Shown piece by piece: positions 29,352-46,436 of a DNA stretch of 64,000 bases. Location of the stretch: assembly GCA_944474755.1 (NCBI GenBank), contig OX104117.1:76236926-76300925 (forward strand), given 5' to 3'. The position numbers and the translations under genes were made by a program. The notes beneath the pieces were generated by a model. That model made no database searches, had not been told where the DNA came from, and saw nothing but the letters and a program-made list of their open reading frames with translations. The DNA comes from Limnoperna fortunei. Its lineage: Eukaryota > Mollusca > Bivalvia > Mytilida > Modiolidae. Within the stretch, counting starts at the first letter, position 1. Every line of letters begins with the position of its first letter.

Positions 29352-29587
29352 AGTAGTAGGGTGTGAGGTTTTTTAGACCCCACAAAAACGCAAGGCGTTC
29401 AGGCGTTCCCAAATATGGGCATGCCCCGCCCCCTTTCTATACACCGGAAGTGCGTCATCGGAAATTCCACCATCGCGCAAAACATACGTTTCTCATGACG
29501 TCACAGGAAGTACGTGAGTCATCGGAGATTCCAGCATCGCGCAAAACCTTATTTGGTCAACAGACATTCCGATTCAATGCGTCATCA
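29352..29587 (+). repeat. Polinton left terminal inverted repeat
   Basis: The outer 210 bp (to GGTCAAC at 29561) match the right end with about 5 substitutions; similarity fades by 29587. The first roughly 110 bp are identical. Two copies of a subterminal motif (CATCGGA(A/G)ATTCCA then CATCGCGCAAAAC) lie inside. A TGACGTCA (29496-29503) and a TGAGTCA (29515-29521) lie between or beside them. Confidence 0.95.
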
Positions 29588-29730: not shown

Positions 29731-30252
29731 ATGCAAACCGAAATGGAGAACGCACGTTGTAACATCGAATTGGGAAACAACAGATACGTTCGAGCTACGG
29801 AATGGAAAGATCAGATCGGAATCGACATCAGAGAATGGGAGATAAAAGATGGAAAATTAATCCCTACAAAAAAGGGAATCAGTCTGCCCTTACACCGATG
29901 GAAACTATTAGTCGACAGCTTTGAGTTTCTGGATCAAGCCCTGAAGGAAAAGAGAGACTACAAATCACACCTCGGAAGAAACGTTTACGCGACGACACAG
30001 GCCAACAGTCAATACATCAACATCAGGCAGTATTGGTTGCCACCGAACAACACCGATGTCACACCGACCAAGAAAGGAATTTGTCTAAGACCCACAGAAT
30101 ACGCCAAATTAAAAGACACGGCCATGGTGATAGGAGATGCCGTCCCGGAACTGTCTTCCGTCGTGCCCTGCTCCTACAGTTCAGATCATCAGAACCAGTT
30201 GGGTTTCCTACAATGCCCAGAGTGTAACCCCGACCACTGTACGGAATGGTGA
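29731..30252 (+). CDS. Duplicated PC4-like (transcription coactivator p15) protein
   Basis: The 173-residue protein has two homologous halves. Residues about 8-60 contain RYVRATEWKDQIGIDIREW and GKLIPTKKGISLP. Residues about 85-135 contain NVYATTQANSQYINIRQYW and DVTPTKKGICLRP. The pattern of a beta sheet with IDIR, then PTKKGI and a helix, is that of the PC4/Sub1 C-terminal domain, which binds single-stranded DNA and acts in RNA polymerase II initiation. PC4 domains work as dimers, so a fused duplication could form an intramolecular dimer (inference). The end is Cys-rich (CPECNPDHC). A second ATG at 29743 is an alternative start. It is the first gene inside the left terminus, with its own poly(A) signal at 30368. 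It could instead bind ssDNA during replication. Confidence 0.75.
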   Translation: MQTEMENARCNIELGNNRYVRATEWKDQIGIDIREWEIKDGKLIPTKKGISLPLHRWKLLVDSFEFLDQALKEKRDYKSHLGRNVYATTQANSQYINIRQYWLPPNNTDVTPTKKGICLRPTEYAKLKDTAMVIGDAVPELSSVVPCSYSSDHQNQLGFLQCPECNPDHCTEW

Positions 30253-30700
30253 TTGACGAGACGTATTTCTAGTGCTAAATTGAAAGACTGGTGTGTGATA
30301 TATAAATCATGTGTTACATTATTTTGTATATATATTTGTTGTGTAAAAAATTGATCGGAGTATATACAATAAATTGTAGAAGCTTTTCATTCTGTCTTTC
30401 CTTGTTTATTCACGCTACTCTAAGAAGTATTTTTCTGTAGTCAAAAAAGGATACACGGAAAAGTATTTTTTGAAGTATCGGGAAATGTTTGCTATTAAAT
30501 TGTATTAATTTAGATTTATCTCTTCACATACGAAAACAAAATGTCAGTCACGAGTTATTAAATTAAACGTCGATTCCATGAGTCATCCATCACATGGTAT
30601 TAACGTCACGTGATCTAAATTTCACCAATCAAATAAGACCCGAGTAGTATTTGAAAGAGCGACGAATCAACCCTCCCTCATTTCATCGCCATCCTTACGC
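30253..30700 (+). promoter_or_regulatory. Spacer between PC4-like and CARD genes
   Basis: AATAAA at 30368-30373 probably ends the PC4-like transcript. Further on, TGAGTCA (30579-30585) and TCACGTGATC (about 30607) are candidate bZIP and E-box sites 90-120 bp upstream of the CARD start. AAATAAGACC near 30632 is a weak relative of the TATAAGAG motif. Confidence 0.5.
30368..30373 (+). terminator. Poly(A) signal AATAAA for the PC4-like gene
   Basis: AATAAA lies 116 nt after the PC4-like stop, followed by a T-rich and GT-containing stretch. It is placed as expected for 3' end formation. Confidence 0.6.
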
Positions 30701-30973
30701 ATGGACAGACGCGAGGAAAAGAAGCTCCTGAGACATTTAGTGCGATTAGTCGAAGAAACACCCACGGAAGAGGTCGTGAATTATTTGGTAGCACGACGCA
30801 TTTTGACTCCGGACCTCGCCGAGGACATCGTCTATCAAAACACCACTAGACGTAAAAACAGACAGCTGATTTTCACCCTAACGAGAAGAGGACCCCACGC
30901 CTATAGAATCTTCATCGAAGCCCTTCGTGCACTCGAGTGTGTAGAATTGGCAGACTTAGTGGAATGCGCCTGA
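30701..30973 (+). CDS. CARD-domain protein
   Basis: This 90-residue protein is almost entirely one death-fold domain. It shows EKKLLRHLVRLVEE, LVARRILTPDLAEDI, TTRRKNRQLIFTLTRRG and AYRIFIEALRALECVELADL, the helix 2-6 pattern of a caspase recruitment domain. In particular 'IL' before 'AEDI', 'R..RQLI..L.RRG' and 'F..AL' match the family. CARDs mediate homotypic binding in apoptosome, inflammasome and MAVS/RIG-I signalling. A CARD-only protein would be expected to block or hijack such assemblies (inference). The gene sits in the early-type left block. Its last 10 nt overlap the TBP-like start at 30964, suggesting a shared transcript. Confidence 0.8.
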   Translation: MDRREEKKLLRHLVRLVEETPTEEVVNYLVARRILTPDLAEDIVYQNTTRRKNRQLIFTLTRRGPHAYRIFIEALRALECVELADLVECA

Positions 30974-31470
30974 CCAACGTCGTAGTACAAGCGAATTTGG
31001 CATGTTCCATCGATTTACGAGCTTTGATCTACCGATTATCCAACGCACGCTACGATCCTCGATCGTTTTCGGGGCTGATCTGGCAACATCGAAAGATTGG
31101 AGGAAACTGTCTGTTATTTTCTAACGGCACCATTAACTGTAACGGAAAATGCCTGTCCATAAAAGAAGCTCGACGTCGTCTCCGGAGATACGCTAGAGTT
31201 CTACAACGCATGGGTTATGCCGTTCGTCTTACCCCGATAAGAATAGTGACGGCTTCCGCCGTTCATCAGTTGAGCGGACGTATCGATCCCCGAAAACTGC
31301 CGATCGATTTTAGTTACGAACCGGAGATTTTTCCAGCCGTCATGTTTCGACGAAACGGCGTACATTACATCTGTCACCTCTCCGGAAAATTAATGATCAC
31401 GGGATTGAAGTGTTCTCGCGACGTCCACGAAGTGTATCCCGTTCTCTTGGAGATGGAGCTGTACGTATAA
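30964..31470 (+). CDS. TATA-binding-protein-like protein
   Basis: The 168-residue protein has the two-fold repeat of the TBP saddle. The first half reads LTNVVVQANLACSIDLRALI, NARYDPRSFSGLIWQ, NCLLFSNGTINCNGKC and RRYARVLQRMGY. The second half reads IRIVTASAV, FSYEPEIFPAVMF and HYICHLSGKLMITGLKC, then YPVLL near the end. 'F(S/D)YEPE.FP' and 'G..(V/I)(I/C).G.K' are TBP hallmarks. TBP nucleates transcription at TATA boxes. There is no N-terminal extension, as in archaeal or viral TBPs. I start at ATG 30964 because it overlaps the CARD stop, and because residues upstream in the longer frame (30937) are unlike TBP. Its likely target is the TATAAGAG motif of the downstream genes (inference). It is divergent but convincingly related. 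Confidence 0.8.
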   Translation: MRLTNVVVQANLACSIDLRALIYRLSNARYDPRSFSGLIWQHRKIGGNCLLFSNGTINCNGKCLSIKEARRRLRRYARVLQRMGYAVRLTPIRIVTASAVHQLSGRIDPRKLPIDFSYEPEIFPAVMFRRNGVHYICHLSGKLMITGLKCSRDVHEVYPVLLEMELYV

Positions 31471-31473
31471 GAG
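31466..31473 (+). promoter_or_regulatory. TATAAGAG motif before the 68-residue gene
   Basis: TATAAGAG overlaps the TAA stop of the TBP-like gene and lies 23 nt before ATG 31489. It is one of a set of near-identical motifs in this element. Confidence 0.6.
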
Positions 31474-31488
31474 GTCGTCAACAACAAA

Positions 31489-31695
31489 ATGGACCAGACG
31501 TACATATACATCCTCTTTGCGCAGAAACCCAGCGAAATATACGTGGCTCTTACCAAGACGACACAGACGCTGGACCGCATTAAGTCCTATCTTTCGGATC
31601 CCTACTTGGCACAACCATCGTGGAAGTACGATATCATTCGGTCCTTTTTGGACCTCTATAAGAGTAAAATCGACAGTCCACGAAAACGGCCATGA
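31489..31695 (+). CDS. Small protein of unknown function, 68 residues
   Basis: Not recognised. It is basic at the C-terminus (SKIDSPRKRP) with a hydrophobic YIYILFAQ stretch near the N-terminus. Support for reality comes from context: a TATAAGAG motif 23 nt upstream, and a stop that overlaps the integrase start as ATGA (31692-31695), the same arrangement as other gene pairs here. Confidence 0.55.
   Translation: MDQTYIYILFAQKPSEIYVALTKTTQTLDRIKSYLSDPYLAQPSWKYDIIRSFLDLYKSKIDSPRKRP
31657..31664 (+). promoter_or_regulatory. TATAAGAG motif before integrase
   Basis: TATAAGAG lies 35 nt before ATG 31692, inside the coding sequence of the 68-residue gene. Confidence 0.6.
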
Positions 31696-32786
31696 AGTAC
31701 GAAGACTACTTGGAAAAAATTTATTACGACCCTCGTCATCCGGGATCGTACGGAGGAGTGGAAAAACTGTACAGAGCGGTACGCAAGGAAGGAAAATACG
31801 TGTTGGGAAGAAGCAAAATCGAGTCATGGTTAACGGGACAGGAGACGTTCGGACTACATCGTCAAATCAACAGAGCCTTTCGCCGGCGCAAAGTGATTGC
31901 CCCGTACATCGACTACCAGTGGGACGCCGATACCGCCGTCATGAAAACGTTTAGCAAAGAAAACGACGGATACGCTTATTTCGTCGTTACTATCGACGTC
32001 TTTTCGCGATTTGCCCACACGTTTCCGTTACGCTCGACTCAAGGCAAGGAAATGTCGAACGCCTTGCAGACCCTCTTCCGACTTGGAAGGAAACCCAACA
32101 AGCTGAGAATCGACAAGGGAGTCGAATTCCGGAATAGAGACGTTCGGCGAGTGTTAAAAGCCGAGAAAGTGGATCATTTTTACACCCAGAACGAACAGAA
32201 AAGTTCCTACGCCGAACGATGTATCAAGACGATAAAGAGCAAAATCTTTCGTTACCTGTCCCGTCATCAGACGCACCGCTGGATCGACGTTCTGGAAGAA
32301 ATCACCCAAAGCTACAACGGAGCTTATCACCGTTCCATCAAGATGGCTCCTCGTGCGGTGACGAAAAAAGACGAGGCTCGATTATGGAAGATGCAATATT
32401 CAACGGAACGATACCAAGCACCGAGAAGAGGATATGTCTTTAAAAAGGGAGACACGGTACGCCTCTCTCACGTCAGACAGCCCTTCGATCGAGAATACGA
32501 CGAACGATGGACGATGGAATATTTCGTGGTGGACGATCGCGGGATGAAGGACGGTCTTCCTTATTACACGTTAAAGGACACGACAGACGACGCAGTTCGA
32601 GGAACTTTTTATCAATCGGAATTGAACAGGGTGAAAGTCACCGATCAGACAGAGTACCGGATAGAAAAAGTCATTCGTCGTCGACGCCACGATGCAATCG
32701 TCAAATGGATGGGTTGGCCCGCTAAATTCAACAGTTGGATTCCCCTGGCGGATCTGAAAGACTATAAGAGGAAGGACAGAGAATAG
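31692..32786 (+). CDS. Polinton integrase with chromodomain
   Basis: A retroviral-type DDE integrase that inserts the linear element into host DNA, giving 6-bp duplications. The 364-residue frame is intact. The catalytic triad is D80 (WDADTAVM), D141 (LRIDKGVEF) and E175 (YAERCIKTIKSK), with 34-residue spacing between the last two, as in the D,D35E class. The N-terminal zinc-binding H2C2 finger common in retroviral integrases is not evident. Residues about 322-360 form a chromodomain (YRIEKVIRRRRHDAIVKWMG, W, SWIPLADL), which would read histone marks at the target. Overlaps the preceding gene by 4 nt. Confidence 0.95.
   Translation: MKYEDYLEKIYYDPRHPGSYGGVEKLYRAVRKEGKYVLGRSKIESWLTGQETFGLHRQINRAFRRRKVIAPYIDYQWDADTAVMKTFSKENDGYAYFVVTIDVFSRFAHTFPLRSTQGKEMSNALQTLFRLGRKPNKLRIDKGVEFRNRDVRRVLKAEKVDHFYTQNEQKSSYAERCIKTIKSKIFRYLSRHQTHRWIDVLEEITQSYNGAYHRSIKMAPRAVTKKDEARLWKMQYSTERYQAPRRGYVFKKGDTVRLSHVRQPFDREYDERWTMEYFVVDDRGMKDGLPYYTLKDTTDDAVRGTFYQSELNRVKVTDQTEYRIEKVIRRRRHDAIVKWMGWPAKFNSWIPLADLKDYKRKDRE
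32763..32770 (+). promoter_or_regulatory. TATAAGAG motif before the 114-residue gene
   Basis: TATAAGAG lies 33 nt before ATG 32796, within the end of the integrase gene. Confidence 0.6.
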
Positions 32787-32795
32787 GATGTAATC

Positions 32796-33140
32796 ATGAA
32801 TCAATCCAACGTATACGTTCACATTCATTTTTTGAGAGAATTGGGAGAAGCTAATTCGACGACTAGAAAACTTTTGATTCGATACATGACGAGAGGACAA
32901 ATGGAAGCATTGGCCGAAGTCGTGCGTTACATATTGGACGGGTCCTTACCCGTCTTGATTAGAGATTCACCATTCATTAGAGAACGATCGTTATTGTTGC
33001 GTCAAATAATCGATCCCGGAATATCGCTGCACAGGAAACGAAACTCTTTATTGACTTATCAGGACATCGTACCTCGTCTGTTACGAAGACGAAATCTGAA
33101 TCGAGCCATCGTTCTATCCCTACGTCGTGGAGAAACATAA
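32796..33140 (+). CDS. Polinton small protein, helical, paralogue of the 36507 protein
   Basis: A 114-residue basic, helix-rich protein. FLRELGEANSTTRKLLIRYM and QMEALAEVVRYILDGSLPVL align with FLHLLRVARKDQRKALLKTI and QLKALSEIAHNVIKGTIVL of the protein at 36507, so the two are paralogues. The C-terminus is Arg-rich (RLLRRRNLNRAIVLSLRRGE). Function unknown; a virion or DNA-binding role is possible. Its TAA stop is part of the next (C)ATAAGAG motif. Confidence 0.6.
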   Translation: MNQSNVYVHIHFLRELGEANSTTRKLLIRYMTRGQMEALAEVVRYILDGSLPVLIRDSPFIRERSLLLRQIIDPGISLHRKRNSLLTYQDIVPRLLRRRNLNRAIVLSLRRGET

Positions 33141-33143
33141 GAG
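33136..33143 (+). promoter_or_regulatory. CATAAGAG motif before the penton-like gene
   Basis: CATAAGAG overlaps the TAA stop of the preceding gene and lies 38 nt before ATG 33174. Confidence 0.6.
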
Positions 33144-33173
33144 GAAGCTCAACGTCACGGATCCGAATTCGAG

Positions 33174-33596
33174 ATGGATGCATTTTACCTGTTTTTGTAT
33201 TGCGGCGATTCGTTGTCTACCCACGTCGACAACCACGCCGGAGATTTCGTGGTAGATCTCCCCAAAAGGTTCCTGCTGGAAGGAAACTGGGAATGCGCTC
33301 TGACGGAACTCACCCTACCGTCCCAGTTGGAGTATCCGAGTCATCGACTGAACGTCTGCGCCGATATCGTCGAAGAATCGAACGCGCGCAATAGATTTTT
33401 GCCTCTCTTGCGAGTCATCGAGTCCGTGGATCAAGACACGTTGGAGTTTGGCCAACTTTATTACGTCAAATTACGTAATGCCGACCTGAATCGATTGCGT
33501 TTCTTTATAAGAGACGATCGACTAGAACCTTGTCGGTTTAAACTCGACCGTCTGTACTGTACGCTTCACTTCAGAAGACGACGATGGGATCGATAG
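33174..33596 (+). CDS. Penton-like minor capsid protein
   Basis: A 140-residue protein with FYLFLYCGDSLSTHVDNHAG, DFVVDLPKRFLLEGNWECAL and TEL. This resembles the N-terminal beta-sandwich of Polinton minor capsid (penton) proteins, where a short strand is followed by a 'F...LP..L.L.G.WE.AL.E' pattern. It would occupy the capsid vertices as a single jelly roll. The position two genes upstream of the major capsid protein is usual. It is on the short side for a complete penton, so it may be a compact or partial form. The last 13 nt overlap the next start at 33584. Confidence 0.65.
   Translation: MDAFYLFLYCGDSLSTHVDNHAGDFVVDLPKRFLLEGNWECALTELTLPSQLEYPSHRLNVCADIVEESNARNRFLPLLRVIESVDQDTLEFGQLYYVKLRNADLNRLRFFIRDDRLEPCRFKLDRLYCTLHFRRRRWDR
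33506..33513 (+). promoter_or_regulatory. TATAAGAG motif before the 97-residue gene
   Basis: TATAAGAG lies 78 nt before ATG 33584, inside the penton-like gene. The distance is greater than for most other sites. Confidence 0.45.
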
Positions 33597-33877
33597 AAGT
33601 CTATGATCACAAGACACAACGATGGATGCCGTACGTGCCCGATCACAAAAAGTGGGAACAGCATTTCTCGGACCTGTCGGAAGGAAGGGTTCGACCAGAT
33701 CACAAGGGACGTTACATCGTGGGAAGCGGTACCCAGTGGAGATCAGAGACGCCTCAAGTTCAATTGGTGACACCGTTAGCCCAGACGCTCGAGATGGCCA
33801 AGTCCGAACTGGCGCCACCGAAAGTTATAAGAAGCCGCAAACGCCGACGTAGTTTTAACCAACTAGAAGAATCATGA
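33584..33877 (+). CDS. Conserved-position small capsid-region protein, 97 residues
   Basis: Contains RWMPYVPDHKKWEQHFSDLS and HKGRYIVGSG, with a basic RSRKRRR near the end that could be a nuclear localisation or DNA-binding tract. It is wedged between the penton-like and major capsid genes with overlaps of 13 nt and 4 nt (ATGA at 33874-33877). I recall similar small proteins beside capsid genes in other Polintons but cannot assign a function; a capsid cement or core role is plausible. Confidence 0.6.
   Translation: MGSIEVYDHKTQRWMPYVPDHKKWEQHFSDLSEGRVRPDHKGRYIVGSGTQWRSETPQVQLVTPLAQTLEMAKSELAPPKVIRSRKRRRSFNQLEES
33826..33833 (+). promoter_or_regulatory. TATAAGAA motif before the major capsid gene
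   Basis: TATAAGAA, one base off the consensus, lies 48 nt before ATG 33874. Confidence 0.45.
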
Positions 33878-35133
33878 ATCACTTGGAAGAAAATCACGAA
33901 GACGAACTGTCCCTGTTTTCGCCTCCACCGGCCAACACTGGCATCCAGAGGAGAGAATGGATCGAATTTCGACCGACCAATCAAATCTCGGGCGATGGTC
34001 CTTTGGAGTTTACGATTCCACCGCAATCGGCTGCCTACATGGATCTGAAGAGAAGTTCGCTCAAAGTCAAATTACGACTTTTAAATGAAGACGGAACACC
34101 GATCACAAAAGACGCCAACGTTTGCTTAGTAAATTTAGCCCTGCATGCGCTATTTTCAAATGTAGATTGTCATCTGCAGCACACACCCGTATCTCAAATG
34201 GGATCCAACTACCCGTTCAAAGCCTACATCGACACCCTGTTGGAGAGTGGAAAGGACGACACAGTACACCTCAATGCGCAATGTTTTTCTAAAGACACGG
34301 CCGGACACCACGACGACACCAACGTTAAATCCAGTTCCAATGTTGCATTGTACAGACGCTCTATGTTTACGAACGAAGGTCGCATATTAGAGATGGAGGG
34401 CCCCATTCACCTAGACGTATTTAGACAGAACCGTCTGTTGCTGAATGGTATCGCCTTGACCCTAAAGCTGTGGCCCACTCAGAACGCATTTCGCTTGTTG
34501 TCGAGCGATGTCAACGCCGCTTACAGAGTACAGATCTTGGACGCCGCATTCAAATTGTGCCTACAGAAACCCAACGCCGGAGTGCTGATGGCTCATAATC
34601 AGTTGTTAGGAAATGCCACGGCCATGTATCCGTTCGTCAATAGCGATATGAAGATTGCCTCCGTCTCCAAGGGAGAATACGGATTCGTCGAAAACAACCT
34701 ATTCCAAGGAGAAATTCCCAACCAGCTGATCGTCGGCCTGGTTAGCAGCGAAGCGTTCAACGGAAGTTATAAGAAGTCACCCTTCAATTTTCAAGGATTC
34801 GATTGCAATTTTCTGAGCCTGTACATCGACGGACAATCGTATCCGACCCAACCGCTACAACCCAACTTTGCGGGACGCAACTACGTGGACGCTTACAAGA
34901 GACTCGCCGCTTTCAGGGAGGACGTCGACGTGTCTTACTGGGATTTTGCAGGCTATGCCCTGTTCGTTTTCAACATTGACGACCGAGTCGATTTTAATGC
35001 CAAAAGAAGAGGAGACTGTCGTTTGGAAATAAAATTCGGCACGGCTTTACCCGAGAGCGTGACCGTGTTGATGTATGGCAAGTTTCCCAAGGTCATGCAC
35101 GTGGATCAATCCAGACGAGTCTTACTACCATGA
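33874..35133 (+). CDS. Major capsid protein (double jelly roll)
   Basis: The intact 419-residue frame is in the position and size range of Polinton major capsid proteins, which trimerise into hexon-like capsomers. Features include an acidic N-terminus, IEFRPTNQISGDGPLEFTIP and YMDLKRSSLKVKLRL (first beta strands), DVFRQNRLLLNGIALTLKLW (typical of the first jelly roll), and a second half with PFNFQGFDCNFLSLYIDGQS and DFAGYALFVFNID. It overlaps the protease start by 4 nt (ATGA at 35130). The assignment rests on context plus recalled family patterns. Confidence 0.85.
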   Translation: MNHLEENHEDELSLFSPPPANTGIQRREWIEFRPTNQISGDGPLEFTIPPQSAAYMDLKRSSLKVKLRLLNEDGTPITKDANVCLVNLALHALFSNVDCHLQHTPVSQMGSNYPFKAYIDTLLESGKDDTVHLNAQCFSKDTAGHHDDTNVKSSSNVALYRRSMFTNEGRILEMEGPIHLDVFRQNRLLLNGIALTLKLWPTQNAFRLLSSDVNAAYRVQILDAAFKLCLQKPNAGVLMAHNQLLGNATAMYPFVNSDMKIASVSKGEYGFVENNLFQGEIPNQLIVGLVSSEAFNGSYKKSPFNFQGFDCNFLSLYIDGQSYPTQPLQPNFAGRNYVDAYKRLAAFREDVDVSYWDFAGYALFVFNIDDRVDFNAKRRGDCRLEIKFGTALPESVTVLMYGKFPKVMHVDQSRRVLLP

Positions 35134-35600
35134 ACAACGAAGAAATCGAAAGAGCGCTGAAACCTTTAGGAATCCAAGCCGTTTGTGCCGACGAATTGAG
35201 GCGACCGAAAAAACCAAAGACGTACGTCGTCAACACAGATCCGTGTTCCAGACCCGGCACTCACTGGACGGTGTTTCATTTTCCAGCGAAAGGACCACCC
35301 GAATTTTTCGATTCGCTGGGGCACCCACCGAGTGATTACCAGCGTCATTTCGAAGAAGTGCTGGGAACGTCTTATCTGTATACACCGGACGCCATACAAC
35401 CGGAGGACAGCGACACCTGTGGAGCCTACTGCATTCATTTCGTACGCGAGAGACATCGCTCGAGGACTTTTCAAGAGATCCTGAACCGGTTTAGCACCCT
35501 GGATTTAAAGGCCAACGATCGAAAAGTGAAAAACTTCATAAGAGAGAGAAACGACACGACTCTTCAAAATGGAGCGCAAAAGCAGCACGCACAGTACTGA
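35130..35600 (+). CDS. Adenain-like maturation protease (Ulp1-type cysteine protease)
   Basis: The 156-residue protein carries the complete catalytic set of the adenovirus protease/Ulp1 fold: H45 in GTHWTVFHF, D61 in FFDSLG, Q90 in IQPEDSDTCG and nucleophile C97 followed by GAYCIHF. The length is typical of Polinton proteases. It would process capsid proteins during virion maturation. It begins in an ATGA overlap with the major capsid gene and has no TATAAGAG nearby, so it may be translated from the capsid transcript. Confidence 0.92.
   Translation: MNNEEIERALKPLGIQAVCADELRRPKKPKTYVVNTDPCSRPGTHWTVFHFPAKGPPEFFDSLGHPPSDYQRHFEEVLGTSYLYTPDAIQPEDSDTCGAYCIHFVRERHRSRTFQEILNRFSTLDLKANDRKVKNFIRERNDTTLQNGAQKQHAQY
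35537..35544 (+). promoter_or_regulatory. CATAAGAG motif before the membrane protein gene
   Basis: CATAAGAG lies 32 nt before ATG 35569, inside the end of the protease gene. Confidence 0.6.
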
Positions 35601-35796
35601 ACGATGGCCAATGCTGGGAAGTCAACTACCCAAATCGGAAATCGTCTACTTTTGCCAGATGATCATGGTCTTCGTCATCATCGTCACATCGATCGCCAAT
35701 CTGTCCCTGCAAAACGACAAGAGCGAACTATGGATAGCGTTGTTGAGCAGTGCCATCGGATACGCCTTACCCAATCCCACGCTCAAGAAGACATAA
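35569..35796 (+). CDS. Small two-span membrane protein
   Basis: A 75-residue protein with one strong hydrophobic segment (IVYFCQMIMVFVIIVTSIAN, residues 25-44) and a second (LWIALLSSAIGYALP, residues 55-69), then a short basic tail. The order 'membrane span, NLSL, LW..LLS..IGY.LPNP' is one I associate with small membrane proteins of Polinton-related viruses, though without a known activity. It overlaps the protease by 32 nt; the TAA stop forms part of the next motif. Confidence 0.6.
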   Translation: MERKSSTHSTERWPMLGSQLPKSEIVYFCQMIMVFVIIVTSIANLSLQNDKSELWIALLSSAIGYALPNPTLKKT

Positions 35797-35799
35797 GAG
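35792..35799 (+). promoter_or_regulatory. CATAAGAG motif before the packaging ATPase
   Basis: CATAAGAG overlaps the TAA stop of the membrane protein gene and lies 39 nt before ATG 35831. Confidence 0.6.
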
Positions 35800-35830
35800 A
35801 AGATCGACATCTAGATTCGAAACGGGCATC

Positions 35831-36478
35831 ATGGTGTTTTCGTTTTTATCGTGTTCTAGCACGTGCATCGCTGGGCAAACGGGAAGTGGAAAGACGCGGT
35901 TCGTCTACAGGCTGTTGAAACATTTGAAAGAAATGTACCCCGACGAACCTCCCGAAGCCGTCTTGTATTGCTACGGTATACACCAACCGCTCTTTGAAGA
36001 AATGGAAAAGACTATACCTCACCTCTCATTTCACGAGGGGCTACCTTCTATGGAAACGGTTCGAGAATTTACTGTAGACAGACATCATCGCCTGATCGTA
36101 TTAGACGATCTCATGCATCGCGTGGTACGCGACGTCGACATGGAGTTACTTTTCACACAGGGATGTCACCACAGACGACTGAGCGTCTTGTTTTTGACTC
36201 AGAATCTTTACGTTCAAGGAGCTAGATCGAGGACTATTGCCCTGAACACCACGTACTTGGTGTTGATGAAAAACGTCAGAGACGTCTCTCAGATCGCCAC
36301 CTTGGGACGACAACTCTATCCCGGGAAATCTAAAGTACTCACGGAAGCATACGAAGACGCCACGGCGACACCCTATGGATATTTGGTGGTGGACATGTCT
36401 CCGCATTCCGACGACGCATATCGATTGAGGACCCACGTGTTTCCGGGAGAAGACCCGATCGTCTACGTGAAAACATAA
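35831..36478 (+). CDS. FtsK/HerA-type genome-packaging ATPase
   Basis: A 215-residue P-loop ATPase expected to pump the element's DNA into capsids. Walker A is GQTGSGKT at residues 15-22; Walker B is LIVLDDL at 88-94, with the double acidic pair of the HerA/A32 class. A later Gln-containing strand (VLFLTQNLY) fits sensor I, and QGARSRTIALN has Arg candidates for a finger. The frame is open from 35750, but I start at ATG 35831. This leaves a Walker A position typical of the family, excludes a basic leader that overlaps the upstream gene, and lies 39 nt after the promoter motif. Confidence 0.92.
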   Translation: MVFSFLSCSSTCIAGQTGSGKTRFVYRLLKHLKEMYPDEPPEAVLYCYGIHQPLFEEMEKTIPHLSFHEGLPSMETVREFTVDRHHRLIVLDDLMHRVVRDVDMELLFTQGCHHRRLSVLFLTQNLYVQGARSRTIALNTTYLVLMKNVRDVSQIATLGRQLYPGKSKVLTEAYEDATATPYGYLVVDMSPHSDDAYRLRTHVFPGEDPIVYVKT

Positions 36479-36481
36479 GAG
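36474..36481 (+). promoter_or_regulatory. CATAAGAG motif before the 79-residue gene
   Basis: CATAAGAG overlaps the TAA stop of the ATPase gene and lies 33 nt before ATG 36507. Confidence 0.6.
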
Positions 36482-36506: not shown

Positions 36507-36746
36507 ATGGGTCGACTACTAGAAGACCAACGTCACTTTCTCCATCTGTTGAGAGTGGCCAGGAAAGACCAGAGAAAGGCCTTGCTAAAAACCATCGACA
36601 AATCGCAACTGAAAGCCTTGAGCGAAATCGCCCACAACGTCATCAAAGGGACGATAGTTCTGACACCGGAGGAGAAACTACGACTGAAGCGATATAAAAA
36701 GACCATCGACGTTTTGGGGAAAAAGTCGTCGACGAGAAAACATTGA
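36507..36746 (+). CDS. Polinton small helical protein, 79 residues
   Basis: A basic, helical protein: HFLHLLRVARKDQRKALLKT, then QLKALSEIAHNVIKGTIVL, LRLKRYKKTIDVLGKK and SSTRKH. It is a shorter paralogue of the protein at 32796. I recall proteins with an 'LxALxEIxxNxxxGxIxL' core in Polintons and related invertebrate elements, but no function is established. High charge and late position suggest a virion core or DNA-binding role (inference). Confidence 0.6.
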   Translation: MGRLLEDQRHFLHLLRVARKDQRKALLKTIDKSQLKALSEIAHNVIKGTIVLTPEEKLRLKRYKKTIDVLGKKSSTRKH

Positions 36747-37066: not shown

Positions 37067-37470
37067 TTATATACAAGTCAGTAGGAATATACTTATACTA
37101 TTTACAATACAGAACAAACAACGACATCAAATCTCTAGAAAAATAATCGACGTGAAAAATATTATATACAAGTCAGTATTACATATATCAATACTATTTA
37201 CAATACAGAAAAACTACAACGACATCAAATCTCGAGAAAAAATAATCGACGTGAAAAATATTATATACAAGTCAGTATTACATATATCAATACTATTTAC
37301 AATACAGAAAAAAAAATACAACGACATCAAATTTCGAGAAAAAATAATCGACGTGAAAAATATTATATACAACCCAGTATTACATATATCCATACTATTT
37401 ACAATACAGAAAAAAAAAATACAACGACATCAAGTCGTGAAAAAAAAAATCGACCATAACACGTAAAAAA
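37067..37470. repeat. About 100-bp tandem repeat, four units
   Basis: Units beginning TTATATACAAGTCAGTA, followed by ACTATTTACAATACAGAA, ACAACGACATCAAAT and AATAATCGACGTGAAAAA, recur near 37067, 37161, 37260 and 37361. It lies in the convergent spacer between the plus-strand genes and the polymerase gene. The open frame at 37152-37466 is a repeat artefact. Confidence 0.85.
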
Positions 37471-37499
37471 TATGCACGTTATTTCATTACATTATTGAA

Positions 37500-38330: not shown

Positions 38331-38376
38331 AAAAAAGCATACATGATCATAAAACAATAATTCGAGTAACGCTATG

Positions 38377-41300
38377 TCATTCCGAGTCGCTTTCAAAGTT
38401 AGTGTCCAAAAGATGTACGAGGTATCGATCGTGGTCATCGAGGTCGACATCCATCGGTTCTTCGACGTTCTTGGGTTCTTCGGTCCTTAGTTTAAACATA
38501 TTTTATTTGCTCAAATATGCAAATAGGATAAGACACAAGTTAATCAAACTTATGAAGTCTTCTCCAAATATACAGTATGTTACAAAAATATATTGATGGA
38601 GCAGCATACATAGTAATACAATTCAAATTATATTATGTTTGTTAGAAATGAACCTTAAGGGATAAAATAAAACATTTGACAAATATTAAAGAAAAAAAGG
38701 AATAGAGAGAAAATAGAGGATAGATGATAGATGATAGATGTGATGATGAGTGTGATTTAAAAGCATTGTGAAAAGAATCAAACAATCGGGAACCTTTCTG
38801 ACCCTTTAATATACTCAAAGACGTGCTTAAAAACTAGTTCGTTCTGCTCATTAGTCAAAAGCGAATTACCAAATGTAAGAAGTTCTAAATTTACTGGACA
38901 ATAGATTGGCAGCCACTGAAGGTTTTGAAATAATCTATTCCTAATGTTAGCATACTTCGAACATTCCAAGAAGTAATGATTTGAATCTTCACGATCAGAT
39001 CCACATCGACAAGATGGATCAGATAAAATATTTACCCTGTATAGGTCATAATTCAATGTTGATGCTGAACATCTTAATTGGGTTAGGACAATATTAAGTT
39101 TTCGATGACCATATTCATAGTGTTTTGGAACTCTTCTATGTGGGTTCAAGTTTTTTAATTCAGATTTAAATTTAAATATAGAGTCAACATTACGGAGTGA
39201 TAGATCTAAACGGTTCCACTGTCGAATAGTTGAAGGTATGAACGATTCATCAGTCAGGGAAAGTCTACAGAAGGGAGTCATAATATTGTTACCATTGCGC
39301 AAGGGATAAACTGCCGTGCTTTGTATTGTAGGAGGAATTAAGTTACACAGATATGCTGGTGCCGAGTTGTGCTGTATATTATAGAACATTTGTAACTTCC
39401 TGCGTTTTCTGCGCTCATCCAAAGACTCCCACCCAATTTCAGTATAAATATTAATTGCATTAGTAAATATTGGTAGGCCTGTGACTATTCGAGCAGCCTC
39501 GAGTTGTAATTGTTCAAGTTTATTGCAGTAGCTTCACAGGCATATTCAAAAAGTGGTCTTATGAAGACTAAATATAGTTTTTCTAAGTTTTTCCGAGTAA
39601 GTTTATATTTAAGTTTCCTGAGTACGTTCAGGTGCTTTGAAACACTACATATACATATAATATTATCAATGTGTGTATTCCACTTAGCATCACTGCTAAA
39701 GGTGACCCCTAGATGTTTATGAAGATTAGTAATGGGTATATTAATGTCACTTAGTGTAAATCGCATATCCGGTGTTATTATGTTTGAAAATAACATAATT
39801 TCAGTTTTTTCTTCGGTCCTTACGGGGCACAGTTCTATATCTAGTGGAACGGTGGACACGCCGTCATCCAACACTCGTCTCTTACAATAAAAGTAATAGA
39901 ATCCATTCCTCGTTTGATTGTATGTAGAGACGCCGTTATCGATGGCACGGAATCCTTTGAGGGTTCCTTGACCGACGCGTTGTGTGTCGAGGACGTGACG
40001 GAAGGTGGTCATCGGGGCCTTGACACGACGTTTGGTGATCCCTTTCGAACTGAATTTCACTTCCGTGACTTGTCGAGAGTGGTGAACGAGTCGTTTTACG
40101 GGGAGTTTCTTGGCACGTCTCACCAGTTTGTAGGCTGCCATCGCTGTGCTGGATGTGGATACGGTCTTGACCTTTTGCACGATGTAGGTCTTGGAGCAGA
40201 GACCAATCATGACGTCACCATCATACTCGACTGAAAAGATAAAAAATAGAAATATTGAATCTGATGAAAACAAAACAGGGTACTTAAGTGTAATGCCATA
40301 CTACGCTTCGTGCATTTCGGTTAGAGTATTTCGTATAGAATGTTCCACTTGTAAAGTAATGGTTAGAAAAAATGAAAATAAATACCTTTGAAGAGTCCCG
40401 GGGTCCTCTTGTCGTATTTAGCATGTTTCGTACAACAGGTGCGAGGAAACCAGTCGGGATCGTGATCGTCTCTGCAGCATCCGACCAAGGCTCGTTGGTA
40501 AGCTTCACGCATTTCTGGTCGGATGACGGACATGAGATCGGGTCCGGACAGGGCCATGTAGGCGGAATCCGTGTCCATCTCGCAATATTCAAAGTCGGAT
40601 CGATCGACGTAGACGTCCAGGAAATCGTAATAGAACTGGAGCATTCTTAGTTTGGCGTATTGGAGAATGAAGTATCCGATCTGTATGGGAAGGTTGATGT
40701 CGAGGTGTTCTTTCGACTTTTCTACTTCGAAATATTCGTCTTCGTCTACCAGAGTGGTCAACTTTTTAAATTGGGGTTTGTTGGCTTCCATCATGGCCCT
40801 GCCCTCGCCCTCCACGTAGGTAACGGTTTGGAATTTTTCTTGGTCCATGATGGTCCCACCGTAAGCGCTATTGCCGTGAAGTTTAGAAGTTTCGGCGATG
40901 ATGACCTTATCCGGATGGACGTCCCCCAGTCGTCGGTTATCGCTGACTTCACGGACGAAATCCCGGAAACATCGTTGCGGCGTAAATTCCACGACTTGGT
41001 ATATTTTCGTGACCAGCATCCCGTGTTCTAGGTACCATTTTAGGAGTGGAGTGGCGATCAACATTTGACGTCCTCGCATGCCTCCGACTAACAGCCGACG
41101 CGGTTTTTCTGAAAGTTGAAAGCGACGAACGTGGTCCTGCATGTGGTCTCCGATGAGCTCGAAAGGAACGTCGGTGGTACAAAACAGAGGAGACATTTCT
41201 TCAAAGTATTGGTATGGGGTCATGCTCGGATGACGGAAATAGTCTGGCCATTCGTCAGGAACCCGGATGTCGCACTCCACCATACCAAAGAGTTTTCCAC

Positions 41301-44300
41301 TGACTACTCCCTCCAAGATTTCGTTTTCCGTCACGGATCCCTGTGGCGTCGGCGGTTTGCGGGCATCGCAAAAGGCTTTCAGGTGACGATCTCTGCGCAT
41401 GTCATTGCGGAAATGGCATTCCCACTTTTCGACGACCGTATATCCCTGCGTCTGGATCAAAGTGGTGGTCTTGATGGTCTTCTCGTGCTTGGCTTGTCTT
41501 GTTTCGTGCCATTTCTGGTCTTTGACGTTTTTGGTCAGCCAGCATTGGTGTCCGTGCCAGTAACATCCGTGGAACTGATACACGGTGTTGGTATTGGCAT
41601 CGAAACCGTCGACGGGATAAGGTCCGATCTTTTTCTCCTTGCCGGTGTTTAGTTTGTGTTGAATGCGGAGGTGAATGGAATGGTTGAGGAACTCCATCCA
41701 GTCGTACATCAGGGTGTACCGATCTCGTTTCTGCGGCTTGAATCCGTCCTCTTGGCGTCGTCGTACGAAGCTCCCGGTCGGCATCTCTTGGTCGATGGAC
41801 CAAAGGTAGAGGGCGTTGGCATCGAACCCCAGAATCTTCTGACAGGGCTTGACGTTTCGGATGTACGTGTGCCCGACTTCTTGGTGACGATTGAATATGA
41901 TGGACGGGCCACCGGTTAAATTCTGTTTGATGGAAAAGTATAAGTCACTGTTAGCTTCGTCGAATAGGGCAAACGAGGCTCCAGCTTGACGACCGGTGTC
42001 GAACAGCATGCGTCGAGCAAGCCCGGGAACGGAGATTGAAGTCTTGAATAAGTCGATGCCACGGTCGAAATAGAACTGTTGTAGATTTTCCACGGCCTGG
42101 ACGAAGGGACCGACATCGAGATCGTTGTACCAGACGAGAAAGTCACGGAAAGTGGACATGCCCCGGTCGATCCAAACACGTTGACAGAACTGGTACTCTT
42201 CGTCCGAGATGTTGCTGGCTTTCAATGAACTGTAGAAGGCGGCATGCGGAGGCAGAGTAGGATGTTCGAGCTTTTCGGGACCGTCAAACCATTCGTAAGG
42301 AAAGAAGCCTTTGTTTTCGGTGACGTCGAAAGCTTTCAGGAATTGAACGTAGCTGACTCCTGGTGCTAAGTAAGATGTAATGTCCAGAAATTTGAAGGTG
42401 TCGTTAGCCAGACAGGCGTAGCTGTTGTTCCGTTTAACGGTGAATTTTTCTCCCGGGCCGTGCATCTCCAAAGTCTGTGCCAATCGGGTTTTGACCAAGT
42501 TCATGTCGTATTTGGCCGAATTGAATCCCAATACGACGGTTTGGCGACAGTAGGCGTTCAGTTCTTCTTTGAGTTTCTTGAAGACGTTTTTCTCTTTTTC
42601 GTTCACCTCCAGGAGTTCTTCGTCGTCCTCATCTTCGAGAAGTGAACGCATCGGGTTGTCGATGTCTTTATCTAGCCGGTCGAAAGCATCGGCAAATTGT
42701 TGTTGACACAGCTGATAGGTTTTATCGGCGATGCGGGTCATGTACTCCACCATTCGACGGAGAAGAAGCTGAAGATCGGTCTCGACGATACAGTGTGGAT
42801 CGGTAAAGTTGGGAACGTTACTGCAGACGGATACTGAGATCGGTTCGTGTCGTTGGGTCCATGTCAGTTTTGGTGAATTGGATTCTTGAATGGGAACGAG
42901 CATGGCCTCGAAATCGTAGACGATGAAGTATTTGTACAGACGATCGCTGGTAGGAATGTGGATGCCTTGCTCCTCCAACTTGTCGAAAACGGTTTTCGGA
43001 TTACCGTAGAATCCACCTTTAAAGTTGTAGACGGTCTGACCGGTACATTTGAGTTGATGTCGTTTCATGTTGTCTAGTCTATTGAAATGGCGATCGCAGG
43101 TTCCGCATTGGTATTTCTGGGTGTAAGCCGCTAAATTCGAAATGTAGGAAAGATGATGGTCGAATTGATTGACGTGCATGGTATCTTGGTAATGACATCG
43201 AGACTTGTAGACGGTGAGGGCCACACCGTCGTCACGTAGATGGTAGACGTTGACGTTAATCTGGAAACATCGTTCTAAATAGACCATCTGATGGAGTGGC
43301 AGTCCCTGGAAATCGGTTGGATTGACGTCGAGTTGAAGTTCACCGGCAAACTGGACCCATCGGTCGAACAAAGCTTTGGTGTGTGTCTCGAGGCCATCTC
43401 TCAAATGGCCCCGGTGGACGGCCAAACACCGGAAAGCGCAGAGGTGGTCTTTGTATGGTTGTTGTTTGTGCGTGTTCTTGTCCAAGGCCACGATCGATTT
43501 GGACGCTGTTATGTATTCCGGGAGTTGAATGGCGTTCCCCAGCGGATAGTTTAAATTGTATAGGACGAACCGGACGTTGGTGATCAGGTAGGGTTTCCAT
43601 TTGGTATCCGGTCGTTGACGCAAGATGTAATCCGTGATGTCGAATCGTTGAAGACGTAGACGAAGACGGTTGAGATCTCGACGTCTGGAAATGTAGACGG
43701 GACGCTCGAACAGAGACTCGTTCTGGAAAGGTCGGAAGTATCTGTATTCTCCCGTTTCCGTGTGACGTAAAATCAGACCGAATTCCAAGTTGAGGCGAAA
43801 TGCGTGTCCCTGTCGATCGTAGATCCGTTCGGCGTGCTCCATCAATTGTTGGACGGTAAAATCGTTGGTCAGCGGAACGTTATAGGTGGAGGTGACGCTA
43901 CTTTCTTGGTGGTTCTCCAGGATGAGGGGAGCGTTGGCCTCGTAGATGGTCTTCAGAGGTCCGTCTTCTTCCGTCTCCCACGGAGCTTCTCCTTCTGCCC
44001 AAGGTCTTGACTGAAGAGCACCGACTCCGCTCTGGTAGTGGTGTTGCATGCCGTGGAGGTACAGTTGACGTCGATCGGGGAAGCGTGCCGTACACCGTCG
44101 ACATCGGTAGCCTTCCGAAGGACCTGGAGTTGGTTCTGGCGTTGGTTCAGGTTCCGGTTCAATGGACTGCAAATATAAAAGGAAAAACAACAAACACTCG
44201 AATAAATCATTCCGTATTTTAACATTTGACATTATACCCGTGTTAAAGCGTTTTTCCGATAAAAATCAATTAATTCTGTATTTTACGGTATACCCATGTT

Positions 44301-44786
44301 CAGCATTTATCCAAACAAATTAATTTGTACACTCAAAATCAAAATATGTTAAGGGAATACATTTTATCTGATATAGGTAATAACAACAGAACAATAGATA
44401 ATAATTTTATGAAAGGAAAATTCGATACTCTTGTTAACTAAAAAAACATAAATTGAACTTACCATTTGACTGCATTTTTCCTGGTGTTTCTTTAAATCAC
44501 GTTTTTGGGAAAATTTCTTTCCGCATTTTGAGCATATAAATTTCTTGTCTGAGTGTAGAGAACTCACATGAAAGTCTAGATCTGCTTTTTGTTCAAAGTT
44601 AATGTCACAATATTTACACTCGAGTTTACACGAACGATTGTGTTTCAAGAAGTTATCTTTTCTATTAAATTGTTTTTCACATATATCACATGCAAATAGA
44701 CTGGAACCATGTACTGTGTCACTGTGTCTCTGAAGATCGGCTTGTCTTGAGAAAGTTTTGAAACATCTATCGCATTGAAACTCCAT
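38377..44786 (-). CDS. Protein-primed DNA polymerase B with zinc-finger first exon; last exon split by a LINE
   Basis: Replicates the element from protein-primed ends. Exon 1 (44786-44463) encodes four C2H2/C2HC fingers. A GTAAGT donor and TTTGCAG acceptor remove 44462-44167 in phase 0. Exon 2 (44166-40386) holds two further finger-like motifs (YRCRRC near 44105, YQCGTC near 43115), an exonuclease (YDFEAM near 42915; GFNSAKYD near 42515), motif A GFDANALY (about 41820), a Vsr-like insert QFHGCYWHGHQCW (about 41560), motif B KLHGNSAYGG (about 40870), motif C MDTDSAY (about 40575) and KYDKRTPG (about 40405). The intron 40385-40231 (GTATTT...TTTCAG) leads to exon 3 from 40230. A LINE at 38490-39808 breaks exon 3; 32 acidic residues beyond it, with stop at 38379-38377, remain in the original frame. 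The allele as it stands reads about 107 residues into the LINE. All catalytic motifs lie upstream. Confidence 0.92.
38476..38489. repeat. LINE target-site duplication, right-hand copy in gene sense
   Basis: TTCTTCGGTCCTTA, identical to 39809-39822. Confidence 0.95.
38490..39808 (-). mobile_element. 5'-truncated LINE inserted in the polymerase gene
   Basis: A 1319-bp insertion flanked by 14-bp duplications TTCTTCGGTCCTTA. On the minus strand it begins within the RT (KTEIMLF, then HLGVTFSSDAKWNTHI and KLYLVFIRPLFEYA). After one frameshift near 39530 it continues with QLEAARIVTGLP, then the 39422-38778 frame ending in a CRCGSDREDSNHYFLECSKY Cys-His region. The 3' end carries AATAAA near 38505. 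The frame is nearly intact, so the insertion is fairly young. Same structural class as the other LINEs here, but not evidently the same family. Confidence 0.93.
39809..39822. repeat. LINE target-site duplication, second copy
   Basis: TTCTTCGGTCCTTA, identical to 38476-38489, lying within polymerase exon 3. Confidence 0.95.
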
Positions 44787-46207: not shown

Positions 46208-46436
46208 CGATGACTCATTGGAATCGGTTGACCAAATAAGGTTTTGCGCGATGATGGAATCTCCGATGACTCACGTACTTCCGGTGACGTCATGAGACAC
46301 GTATGTTTTGCGCGATGATGGAATCTCCGATGACGCACTTCCGGTGTATAGAAAGGGGGCGGGGCATGCCCATATTTGGGAACGCCTGAACGCCTTGCGT
46401 TTTTGTGGGGTCTAAAAAACCTCACACCCTACTACT
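46208..46436 (-). repeat. Polinton right terminal inverted repeat
   Basis: Inverse of 29352-29587. Contains TGACTCA (46211, 46267) and TGACGTCA (46285-46292), and two copies of the GCGCGATGATGGAATCTCCG motif. Confidence 0.95.

What the first reader, a model, noticed from the sequence alone, without database searches (positions are those of the whole stretch)
30964..31470. A Polinton encodes its own TATA-binding-protein-like factor
Seen: a 168-residue frame with two TBP-like halves, including NARYDPRSFSGLI and FSYEPEIFPAVMF, inside an otherwise standard Polinton. Known: TBP homologues occur in some large DNA viruses, but I do not know of one as a described Polinton gene. Inference: the element partly replaces host initiation and recognises its own TATA-like motif. 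Novelty is not checked.
Basis: partly seen in the sequence, partly recalled or inferred. Interest (0 to 1): 0.9.

Follow-up and report, generated by a model that had tools for sequence, protein, structure and literature searches.

The report
Polinton with its own TATA-binding protein
A virus-like mobile element, in what is probably a bivalve genome, carries its own version of the TATA-binding protein that starts gene reading in all complex cells, and an unusual TATA-like signal stands before many of its genes, which suggests a private gene switch run on the host's RNA polymerase.

Summary
New here: YATAAGAG occurs 8 times on the coding strand of a 5-kb gene block (0.31 expected), 7 times 23-39 nt before an ORF start, integrase and ATPase included; the capsid gene has only a variant. 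In the same genome TBP lies near 18 of 20 capsid loci of this lineage but 0 of 62 diverged ones. Eight TBP-less elements have 0-2 ATAAGAG in the matching block; eight TBP-bearing copies have 6-8.
In 150 relatives, base-reading residues of TBP are replaced in 138-149 and TFIIB contacts mostly kept. Best reading: an element-encoded TBP directs host Pol II to the element's late genes. Binding, transcription and timing are untested.

The parts
29352..29564 (+). left terminal inverted repeat (core part)
   Evidence: 97% complementary to 46224-46436; a weaker 76% pair lies further out; target-site duplication not defined
46224..46436 (-). right terminal inverted repeat (core part)
29731..30252 (+). 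PC4 coactivator with two PC4 domains
   Evidence: PF02229 2.6e-26, two stretches; PDB PC4 7.3e-7
30701..30973 (+). CARD-only protein, caspase-9-like
   Evidence: PF00619 8.8e-13; PDB caspase-9 CARD 4.5e-7
30964..31470 (+). element-encoded TATA-binding protein (168 aa); its start overlaps the end of the CARD frame
31466..31473 (+). motif TATAAGAG, 23 nt before ORF 31489
31489..31695 (+). 68-aa ORF of unknown function
   Evidence: no Pfam match
31657..31664 (+). motif TATAAGAG, 35 nt before integrase
31692..32786 (+). integrase (rve) with C-terminal chromodomain-like stretch
   Evidence: PF00665 1.3e-10; chromo 7e-4, below its cut-off
32763..32770 (+). motif TATAAGAG, 33 nt before ORF 32796
32796..33140 (+). 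114-aa ORF, unknown
33136..33143 (+). motif CATAAGAG, 38 nt before ORF 33174
33174..33596 (+). 140-aa ORF; relatives between integrase and capsid in 5 of 8 TBP-less loci
33506..33513 (+). motif TATAAGAG, 78 nt before ORF 33584 (outside the usual distance)
33584..33877 (+). 97-aa ORF overlapping its neighbours
33826..33833 (+). variant TATAAGAA, 48 nt before the capsid gene
33874..35133 (+). double jelly-roll major capsid protein
   Evidence: AlphaFold2 pLDDT 91.2; Foldseek to iridovirus, Sputnik, PBCV-1 and mavirus capsids, E to 2.9e-15; 125 homologues
35130..35600 (+). adenovirus-type cysteine protease (weak match); no motif within 90 nt upstream
   Evidence: PF00770 8.7e-4, below its cut-off
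35537..35544 (+). motif CATAAGAG, 32 nt before ORF 35569 and 67 nt before ORF 35604
35792..35799 (+). motif CATAAGAG, 39 nt before the ATPase ATG at 35831
35831..36478 (+). A32-type packaging ATPase
   Evidence: PF04665 2.3e-5, above its cut-off, for the frame 35750-36478
36474..36481 (+). motif CATAAGAG, 33 nt before ORF 36507
36507..36746 (+). 79-aa ORF; relatives in 6 of 8 TBP-less loci (after ATPase in 4, before integrase in 2)
40363..44232 (-). PolB-like frame, truncated at its C-terminal end in this copy; Vsr-endonuclease-like stretch at residues 884-944
   Evidence: no Pfam PolB match; PolB motifs read by eye (recalled)
44364..44786 (-). C2H2 zinc-finger protein, canonical TATAAAAA 41 nt upstream
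   Evidence: PF00096 2.2e-18
30579..30585 (.). AP-1 site TGAGTCA before CARD-TBP; others at 29515, 44964, 45041, 46164, 46211, 46267
29496..29503 (.). CRE site TGACGTCA in the left TIR; its partner at 46285 in the right TIR

Best explanation
The element encodes a genuine but altered TATA-binding protein that serves as the initiation factor of its late genes. SHOWN: the gene is a TBP-family protein in a Polinton; it is open in many copies and under purifying selection; in the block that holds integrase, capsid and ATPase, YATAAGAG stands 23-39 nt before 7 of 12 listed ORF starts; eight Polinton loci of the same genome without TBP lack that array. INFERRED: the block is 'late' (no timing data); host factors (AP-1/CREB-type, host TBP) start the genes near the ends (PC4, CARD-TBP, zinc finger-PolB); the new TBP then binds YATAAGAG, recruits host TFIIB and Pol II, perhaps helped by the element's PC4 and without TFIIA, and switches on integrase, morphogenesis and packaging genes. 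The capsid gene, which has only a TATAAGAA variant at 48 nt, would be read from that or from a transcript begun at 33136 or 33506, since its neighbours overlap. The changed minor-groove residues (human numbering V220N, T222N, N257T, V259S) would let the protein accept or prefer the G-containing box.
For: TBP identity and fold: (52 of 52 aligned proteins match PF00352). Selection: pN/pS 0.19 for TBP over 9 stop-free copies, like integrase 0.19 and ATPase 0.22. Motif: 8 in 5081 bases of the coding strand, 0 on the other; 0 of 2000 shuffles reach 8. A codon-preserving null gives 0.65 where 5 were seen inside ORFs, 0 of 3000. 7 of 8 motifs lie 20-40 nt before a listed ORF start; such windows cover 4.5% of positions (P=3e-9). 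No motif lies within 60 nt before PC4, CARD, TBP, zinc finger or PolB. TBP within 6 kb at 18 of 20 capsid loci of this lineage and at 0 of 62 diverged capsid loci (100 of 157 first-look candidates were scored). ATAAGAG 6-8 per integrase-ATPase segment in 8 TBP-bearing copies (0.3 expected) against 0-2 (0.5-0.7 expected) in 8 TBP-less loci. Residues over 150 of 173 held proteins: N257T 149, V259S 144, V220N/Q 143, T222N/Q 138; F197 and F214 150 each; TFIIB-contact E286 as E/D 147 and E284 as E/D 134; TFIIA-contact E191 to R/K 141 (roles recalled). A host TBP exon covering repeat 1 has canonical V220 and T222 and is 35% identical over 57 residues. TBP and capsid distances correlate over 8 pairs (r=0.74, P=0.0009).
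Against: No binding, expression or TSS data. Five of the 12 listed starts have no YATAAGAG at 20-40 nt: 33584 (78 nt), capsid (none within 90 nt, variant at 48), protease and 36806 (none within 90 nt), 35604 (67 nt). If the box set the start about 30 nt downstream, leaders would be a few nt long, and at ORF 31489 the start would fall behind the ATG. The array was seen in DNA of one element lineage only; motif bases are not significantly more conserved than others among its copies (6 of 511 changed against 887 of 45984, P=0.14), and in the partly deleted copy L019 only 1 of 4 covered sites is intact. One TBP-less locus, L030, has ATAAGAG 51 nt before its capsid start. With no motif fixed beforehand, some 7-mer reaches a count of 8 or more in 3 of 300 shuffles. 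TATAAGAG is also the G(-26) variant that plant TBP binds in a crystal (1qn5; the equivalence uses recalled numbering), so host TBP might use it. F305 is H in this copy and in 53 of the 150 proteins.
Confidence: 0.58

Rival explanations
1. The protein is a TBP, but YATAAGAG is not its target: it is a post-transcriptional signal (termination-reinitiation, since some motifs include the stop codon of the gene before), or an initiator at which transcription starts, like the TAAG of baculovirus late genes (recalled), read by host factors.
For: Three of 8 motifs contain the upstream stop codon (31466, 33136, 36474); motif-to-ATG distances of 23-39 nt suit a leader beginning at the motif; several neighbouring frames overlap.
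Against: The array is missing from 8 TBP-less loci with the same order of main genes, which use the same ribosomes and polymerase; the motif is a TATA-box variant; 5 of 8 motifs do not contain the upstream stop.
Confidence: 0.22
2. The protein is an interference factor: it takes up host TFIIB or host TATA boxes and lowers host transcription, or escapes TBP repressors, and has no promoters of its own.
For: TFIIB-contact residues are kept while a TFIIA-contact residue is reversed in charge (E191R/K 141 of 150; roles recalled); the gene overlaps a CARD gene, a likely cell-death modulator.
Against: Does not explain the motif array or its absence in the TBP-less loci examined, nor the near-fixed change of base-reading residues.
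Confidence: 0.11
3. It is a captured host TBP gene that serves as an ordinary second TBP or is a passenger.
For: Closest by sequence to animal TBP in the PDB.
Against: Only 35% identical to the host's own TBP exon; a large family with its own near-invariant residues; purifying selection; TBP-capsid co-divergence.
Confidence: 0.05

Closest known systems
Cellular TATA-binding protein (PF00352; human TBP core)
   Same: Two-repeat saddle, rmsd 1.6 A over 167 residues; intercalating F197, F214 and F288; TFIIB stirrup mostly kept
   Different: No N-terminal extension, 29% identity, coded by a mobile element without introns; family-wide changes at V220, T222, N257, V259 and E191; F305 often H
Beta/gamma-herpesvirus TBP-like proteins (EBV BcRF1, KSHV ORF24) with TATT-box late promoters
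   Same: Works alike if the model is right: a viral TBP directs host Pol II to late genes through a non-canonical TATA box (PMC4893493, passages; PMC7498053, abstract)
   Different: Those have about 10% identity to TBP and act in a six-protein complex; here a small bona fide TBP in a ~17-kb transposon. The other five proteins were not searched for
Chrysochromulina parva virus CpV-BQ1 (large algal virus)
   Same: Encodes TBP and TFIIB, thought to redirect the host RNA polymerase (PMC12085832, passage)
   Different: It has its own TFIIB genes too; no TFIIB was seen among the Polinton frames I annotated
TBP homologues of giant viruses and mirusviruses
   Same: TBP gene in a eukaryotic dsDNA virus, same fold; mirusviruses 59% of genomes (PMC10132985, passages)
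   Different: Best match in the viral structure library is 22% identical. Megavirus chilensis, for one, carries its own RNA polymerase subunits (PMC11464507, passage)
Polinton/Maverick elements (adintoviruses)
   Same: TIRs, integrase, DJR capsid, ATPase, protease-like and PolB-like frames
   Different: TBP, double PC4 and CARD genes and a repeated motif; no TBP-bearing Polinton found in the paper searches listed in the Full report section

Membership tests
TBP family (PF00352) | Significant profile match over both repeats | tested here: met
   78.6 bits, cut-off 22.9, 2 stretches; 52 of 52 aligned proteins
TBP family (PF00352) | Two-fold saddle fold | tested here: met
TBP family (PF00352) | Four intercalating phenylalanines (roles recalled) | tested here: inconclusive
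   Three of four in the window protein, the fourth is H; over 150 proteins F197 150, F214 150, F288 133, F305 88
TBP family (PF00352) | Canonical base-reading residues as in cellular TBP (roles recalled) | tested here: not met
   V220, T222, N257, V259 replaced in 138-149 of 150; N167 and V169 kept in 147 and 143. Membership in the fold family stands, identity of specificity does not
TBP family (PF00352) | Binds TATA-type DNA | not testable with these tools
   no experiment
Polinton/Maverick | Terminal inverted repeats | tested here: met
   29352-29564 and 46224-46436, 97%
Polinton/Maverick | rve integrase | tested here: met
   PF00665 1.3e-10
Polinton/Maverick | Double jelly-roll capsid protein | tested here: met
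   1 of 54 aligned relatives matches PF21738, the window protein itself does not
Polinton/Maverick | A32-type packaging ATPase | tested here: met
   PF04665 24.4 bits, cut-off 22.8
Polinton/Maverick | Adenovirus-type protease | tested here: inconclusive
   PF00770 8.7e-4, 19.5 bits, cut-off 21.3
Polinton/Maverick | Protein-primed PolB | tested here: inconclusive
   1289-aa frame, truncated; no Pfam PolB match; PolB motifs seen by eye only
Polinton/Maverick | Target-site duplication | not tested
   ends were printed but not resolved
Herpesviral vTBP system | Six-protein viral pre-initiation complex with BcRF1/ORF24 | not tested
   no search with those proteins was made
Metazoan TBPL1/TRF2 | Orthology to TBPL1 | not tested
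   no tree; a source calls P0143 TBPL1, which looks like a label by similarity

The most novel reading that the evidence does not exclude
A transposon-virus has evolved an orthogonal TBP-promoter pair: a TBP with rewired minor-groove residues and a private, G-containing TATA box (YATAAGAG). With it, it runs a late programme on host Pol II, free of TFIIA and of host TBP regulators, with PC4 as partner. TBP-less sister Polintons in the same genome keep host-like A/T-rich promoters.
Probability: 0.42. Interest if true: 0.92.

Novelty: new variant of a known kind. Interest (0 to 1): 0.85.

Why it matters
TBP is among the most conserved eukaryotic proteins, so a natural family of hundreds of TBPs with replaced base-reading residues, apparently paired with a different box, is a ready experiment on how TATA recognition can change. 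It would give Polintons, relatives of many eukaryotic dsDNA viruses, an early-late transcription switch. It would also show that a small element without an RNA polymerase can privatise host Pol II with one protein, where beta- and gamma-herpesviruses use a six-protein complex. Finally, some bivalve genes named TBP-like are probably element genes.

Tried and rejected
Chance frame or coding artefact: rejected. Host TBP retrocopy: rejected by 35% identity over 57 residues to a host TBP exon and by the size and residues of the family. Relatives in virus, phage and GTDB contig collections: none found with TBP or with the capsid or integrase, so no DNA from other species could be tested. Motif conservation among copies of this lineage: not informative (P=0.14). 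Motif in old relics of other TBP copies: L018 and L026 have 2 forward copies each, L024 has 3, L028 has 1, L020-L023 none; L027 has 6 beside reverse-transcriptase-like ORFs (by eye). I do not count these as promoter evidence. A hint from Mytilus edulis P0025: its read-on frame has I-R-V where the window's first motif reads I-R-G, and it ends at the codon where the window's second motif supplies a stop. This fits a conserved motif but is no test. pN/pS could not be scored for the capsid (no ungapped copies). Origin of the TBP (animal, protist or viral) was not resolved; no tree was made. A paper search for the recalled E191R/TFIIA mutant found nothing, so the role of that residue stays recalled. 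On recheck I lowered two odds slightly (0.62 to 0.58, 0.45 to 0.42), because the capsid gene has only a variant of the motif.

Full report

THE ELEMENT. TIRs of 213 bases at 97% lie at 29352-29564 and 46224-46436. Between them are a protein with two PC4 domains (29731-30252), a CARD protein (30701-30973) whose end overlaps the TBP start, TBP, an integrase, a 419-residue capsid protein, a protease-like frame and an A32-type ATPase, and on the other strand a C2H2 protein and a truncated PolB-like frame. The capsid model (pLDDT 91.2) matches double jelly-roll capsids of iridovirus, Sputnik, PBCV-1 and mavirus. The protease match is below its Pfam cut-off and the PolB-like frame has no Pfam PolB match, so these two rest on position and on motifs read by eye.

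COPIES AND SELECTION. The host genome (1.34 Gb, 285 contigs) holds 58 TBP matches, 41 loci after merging within 3 kb; 22 of the 58 rows span residues 1-168 and 15 of these 22 have no stop. Pooled pN/pS among stop-free ungapped copies: TBP 0.19 (9 of 11 copies), integrase 0.19 (7 of 8), ATPase 0.22 (6 of 6), PC4 0.21 (9 of 10), CARD 0.27 (14 of 16), the 114-aa ORF 0.39 (7 of 7), the 140-aa ORF 0.70 (9 of 9), protease 0.74 (7 of 8); the capsid could not be scored. Leaving out copies with stops lowers these ratios somewhat.

THE FAMILY. A single-sequence search gave 88 homologues and an alignment search 349, of which 120 are listed. Sources with an animal name are bivalves: Mytilus, Crassostrea virginica, Pinctada imbricata, Mercenaria. 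Records labelled as Thiodiazotropha or Sedimenticola are probably host DNA in assemblies of bivalve symbionts (inference). Among 149 TBP and 99 capsid rows that I compared, 7 pairs share a source and the exact longest-contig length of 3 kb or more, where 0.15 is the mean at offsets of 1-40 bases. So TBP and capsid genes very probably lie on the same contig in 7 further cases. Over these pairs and the window, TBP and capsid distances correlate (Mantel r=0.74, P=0.0009 over all 40,320 permutations). No DNA of these contigs could be read.

THE MOTIF. ATAAGAG occurs 9 times on the + strand of the 64-kb window, 8 of them within 31467-36475 and none there on the other strand. Keeping proteins and codon usage, 0.65 copies are expected inside ORFs where 5 are seen, 0 of 3000. 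Of 12 ORF starts that I listed in the block, 7 have YATAAGAG at 23, 32, 33, 33, 35, 38 and 39 nt: the 68-aa ORF, integrase, the 114-, 140- and 79-aa ORFs, ATPase, and a 75-aa frame at 35569 that overlaps its neighbours. Five do not: the 97-aa ORF (78 nt), the 104-aa ORF (67 nt), capsid (TATAAGAA at 48 nt), protease and the 49-aa ORF (none within 90 nt). Seven of the 8 motifs fall in the -40 to -20 windows (P=3e-9). PC4, CARD, TBP, zinc-finger and PolB starts have none within 60 nt.

THE CONTROL. The capsid protein finds 101 places in the host genome (100 of 157 first-look candidates scored): 20 merged loci of this lineage (68-100% identity) and 62 diverged loci (28-40%), fragments included. 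TBP lies within 6 kb at 18 of 20 and at 0 of 62, and still 0 of 62 within 20 kb; the two exceptions among the 20 are a capsid in two pieces at C5 and a 71-residue fragment at C6. I fetched 8 of the 62, with open frames. All 8 have integrase, capsid, protease and ATPase matches in the same order; 5 have a relative of the 140-aa ORF between integrase and capsid; 6 have a relative of the 79-aa ORF, after the ATPase in 4 and before the integrase in 2. None has TBP by tblastn (only hits of 13-25 residues at E 1.2-10) or by hmmsearch --max at E<=1, whereas the positive control L012 scores 2.3e-88. Their integrase-ATPase segments have 1, 0, 2, 0, 0, 0, 0, 0 ATAAGAG (0.5-0.7 expected), against 8, 8, 8, 6, 7, 7, 7, 7 in 8 TBP-bearing copies (0.3 expected). 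Those 8 are the copies with most of the block among the 20 TBP loci fetched; of the other 12, L019 keeps part of the block and 1 of 4 covered motif sites. The one copy in L030 lies 51 nt before its capsid start. TBP-less segments are A/T-richer (33-38% GC against 48%), and by eye some have canonical TATA sequences before integrase or ATPase (for instance L031 ATPase, L037 integrase). L033 and L034, which look like sisters, have CARD and PC4 but no TBP, so in this sample the array goes with TBP rather than with PC4 or CARD. The TBP-bearing copies are close relatives: this is one lineage against several, not eight independent cases.

THE RESIDUES. Over 150 of the 173 TBP proteins held (chosen by length, four run-on or fused models dropped) aligned with human TBP (human numbering; roles of residues recalled), F197 and F214 are invariant, F288 is kept in 133 and F305 in 88 (H in 53). 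The TFIIB stirrup is kept (E286 as E/D in 147, E284 as E/D in 134, L287 as L/I/V/F in 149). TFIIA-contact E191 is R or K in 141. The central base readers are changed: V220 to N/Q in 143, T222 to N/Q in 138, N257 to T in 149, V259 to S in 144; N167 (147) and V169 (143) remain. A host TBP exon, covering repeat 1, has canonical V220 and T222 and is 35% identical to the element protein. In TBP-DNA complexes repeat 1 faces the 3' half of the box (recalled), where YATAAGAG has its G; polar residues in place of V and T could tolerate or read the amino group of that G. This is a proposal, not a result. TATAAGAG corresponds to the G(-26) variant of the adenovirus major late TATA box (1qn5; numbering recalled), so it is a box that an ordinary TBP can occupy.

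MODEL. Early: AP-1 sites (6 in 2264 bases of the end regions, 0.20 expected, 0 of 2000 shuffles) and CRE sites in the TIRs suggest that host bZIP factors start PC4, CARD-TBP and zinc finger-PolB; a canonical TATAAAAA stands before the zinc-finger gene. Late: TBP binds YATAAGAG and recruits TFIIB and Pol II. 'Early' and 'late' are labels by analogy; no timing is known. The short distance to the ATG means very short leaders if the box behaves like a host TATA box; an initiator-like role is the main rival.

WHAT IS KNOWN. In beta- and gamma-herpesviruses a TBP-like protein with about 10% identity to TBP binds TATT boxes of late genes (PMC4893493, passages) and acts with five other viral proteins (PMC7498053, abstract and section list). 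A large algal virus, CpV-BQ1, encodes TBP and TFIIB that likely redirect the host polymerase (PMC12085832, passages). TBP is found in 59% of mirusvirus genomes (PMC10132985, passages), sporadically in Cymbomonas elements of putative mirusvirus origin (PMC10675990, passages), and in megavirus chilensis (PMC11464507, passages). None of these passages speaks of a TBP gene in a Polinton. Searches of the held open-access library: Polinton with TATA-binding protein, adintovirus (listing only), Polinton with TBP, with bivalve/CARD/PC4, Maverick with TATA-binding protein, polinton-like virus with TBP and related terms, Polinton with promoter motif/TATA, Polinton with TFIID/TFIIB. The five papers that searches returned were checked by passages. 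Term searches inside PMC11071296, PMC11071308 and PMC8905726 found no mention of TATA or TBP (in PMC8905726 only TATA was asked). accept two of the listed terms and were seen as listings; most subscription journals are outside the library.

VERDICT. The gene and its predicted fold: near certain. Element-borne, selected and lineage-wide: strong. Dedicated factor for the motif-bearing genes: likely, untested. Novelty: a new variant of the viral-TBP strategy, in a kind of element where the searches above found no report.

Noticed in passing
30701-30973: CARD-only protein closest to caspase-9 CARD (4.5e-7), overlapping the TBP start by 10 bases; likely a cell-death or immune modulator.
   Followed up: partly
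29731-30252: Tandem double PC4 gene in a Polinton, present also with CARD in TBP-less loci L033 and L034.
   Followed up: partly
29515, 30579, 44964, 45041, 46164, 46211, 46267: AP-1 sites concentrated in the end regions, CRE sites in both TIRs: host stress signals may start the element.
   Followed up: partly
40363-44232 (-), residues 884-944: Vsr mismatch-endonuclease-like stretch inside the PolB-like frame (1e-4).
   Followed up: no
37150-40300: Repeated ORF sequence and reverse-transcriptase-like ORFs (38778-39422, 39485-40273, by eye) where the PolB-like frame ends, so this copy looks interrupted by another element.
   Followed up: no
P0143, P0038, P0025: Bivalve genes named TBP-like 1, TBP 2-like or TBP in databases belong to this family; one unnamed cluster (P0144) counts 198 members.
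   Followed up: partly
P0063, P0075, P0201, P0253: Polinton-type proteins recorded under symbiotic bacteria of bivalves, probably host contamination of their assemblies.
   Followed up: no
L030-L037: 62 diverged capsid loci, fragments included, point to other Polinton lineages in this genome, many with open capsid frames.
   Followed up: partly
Ranid herpesvirus 2 ORF75 and an abalone asfa-like virus protein show weak TBP-like matches in the viral structure library (TM 0.56 and 0.65).
   Followed up: no
24000-24461 and 51366-51998: Repeat arrays in inverted orientation on both sides of the element region.
   Followed up: no
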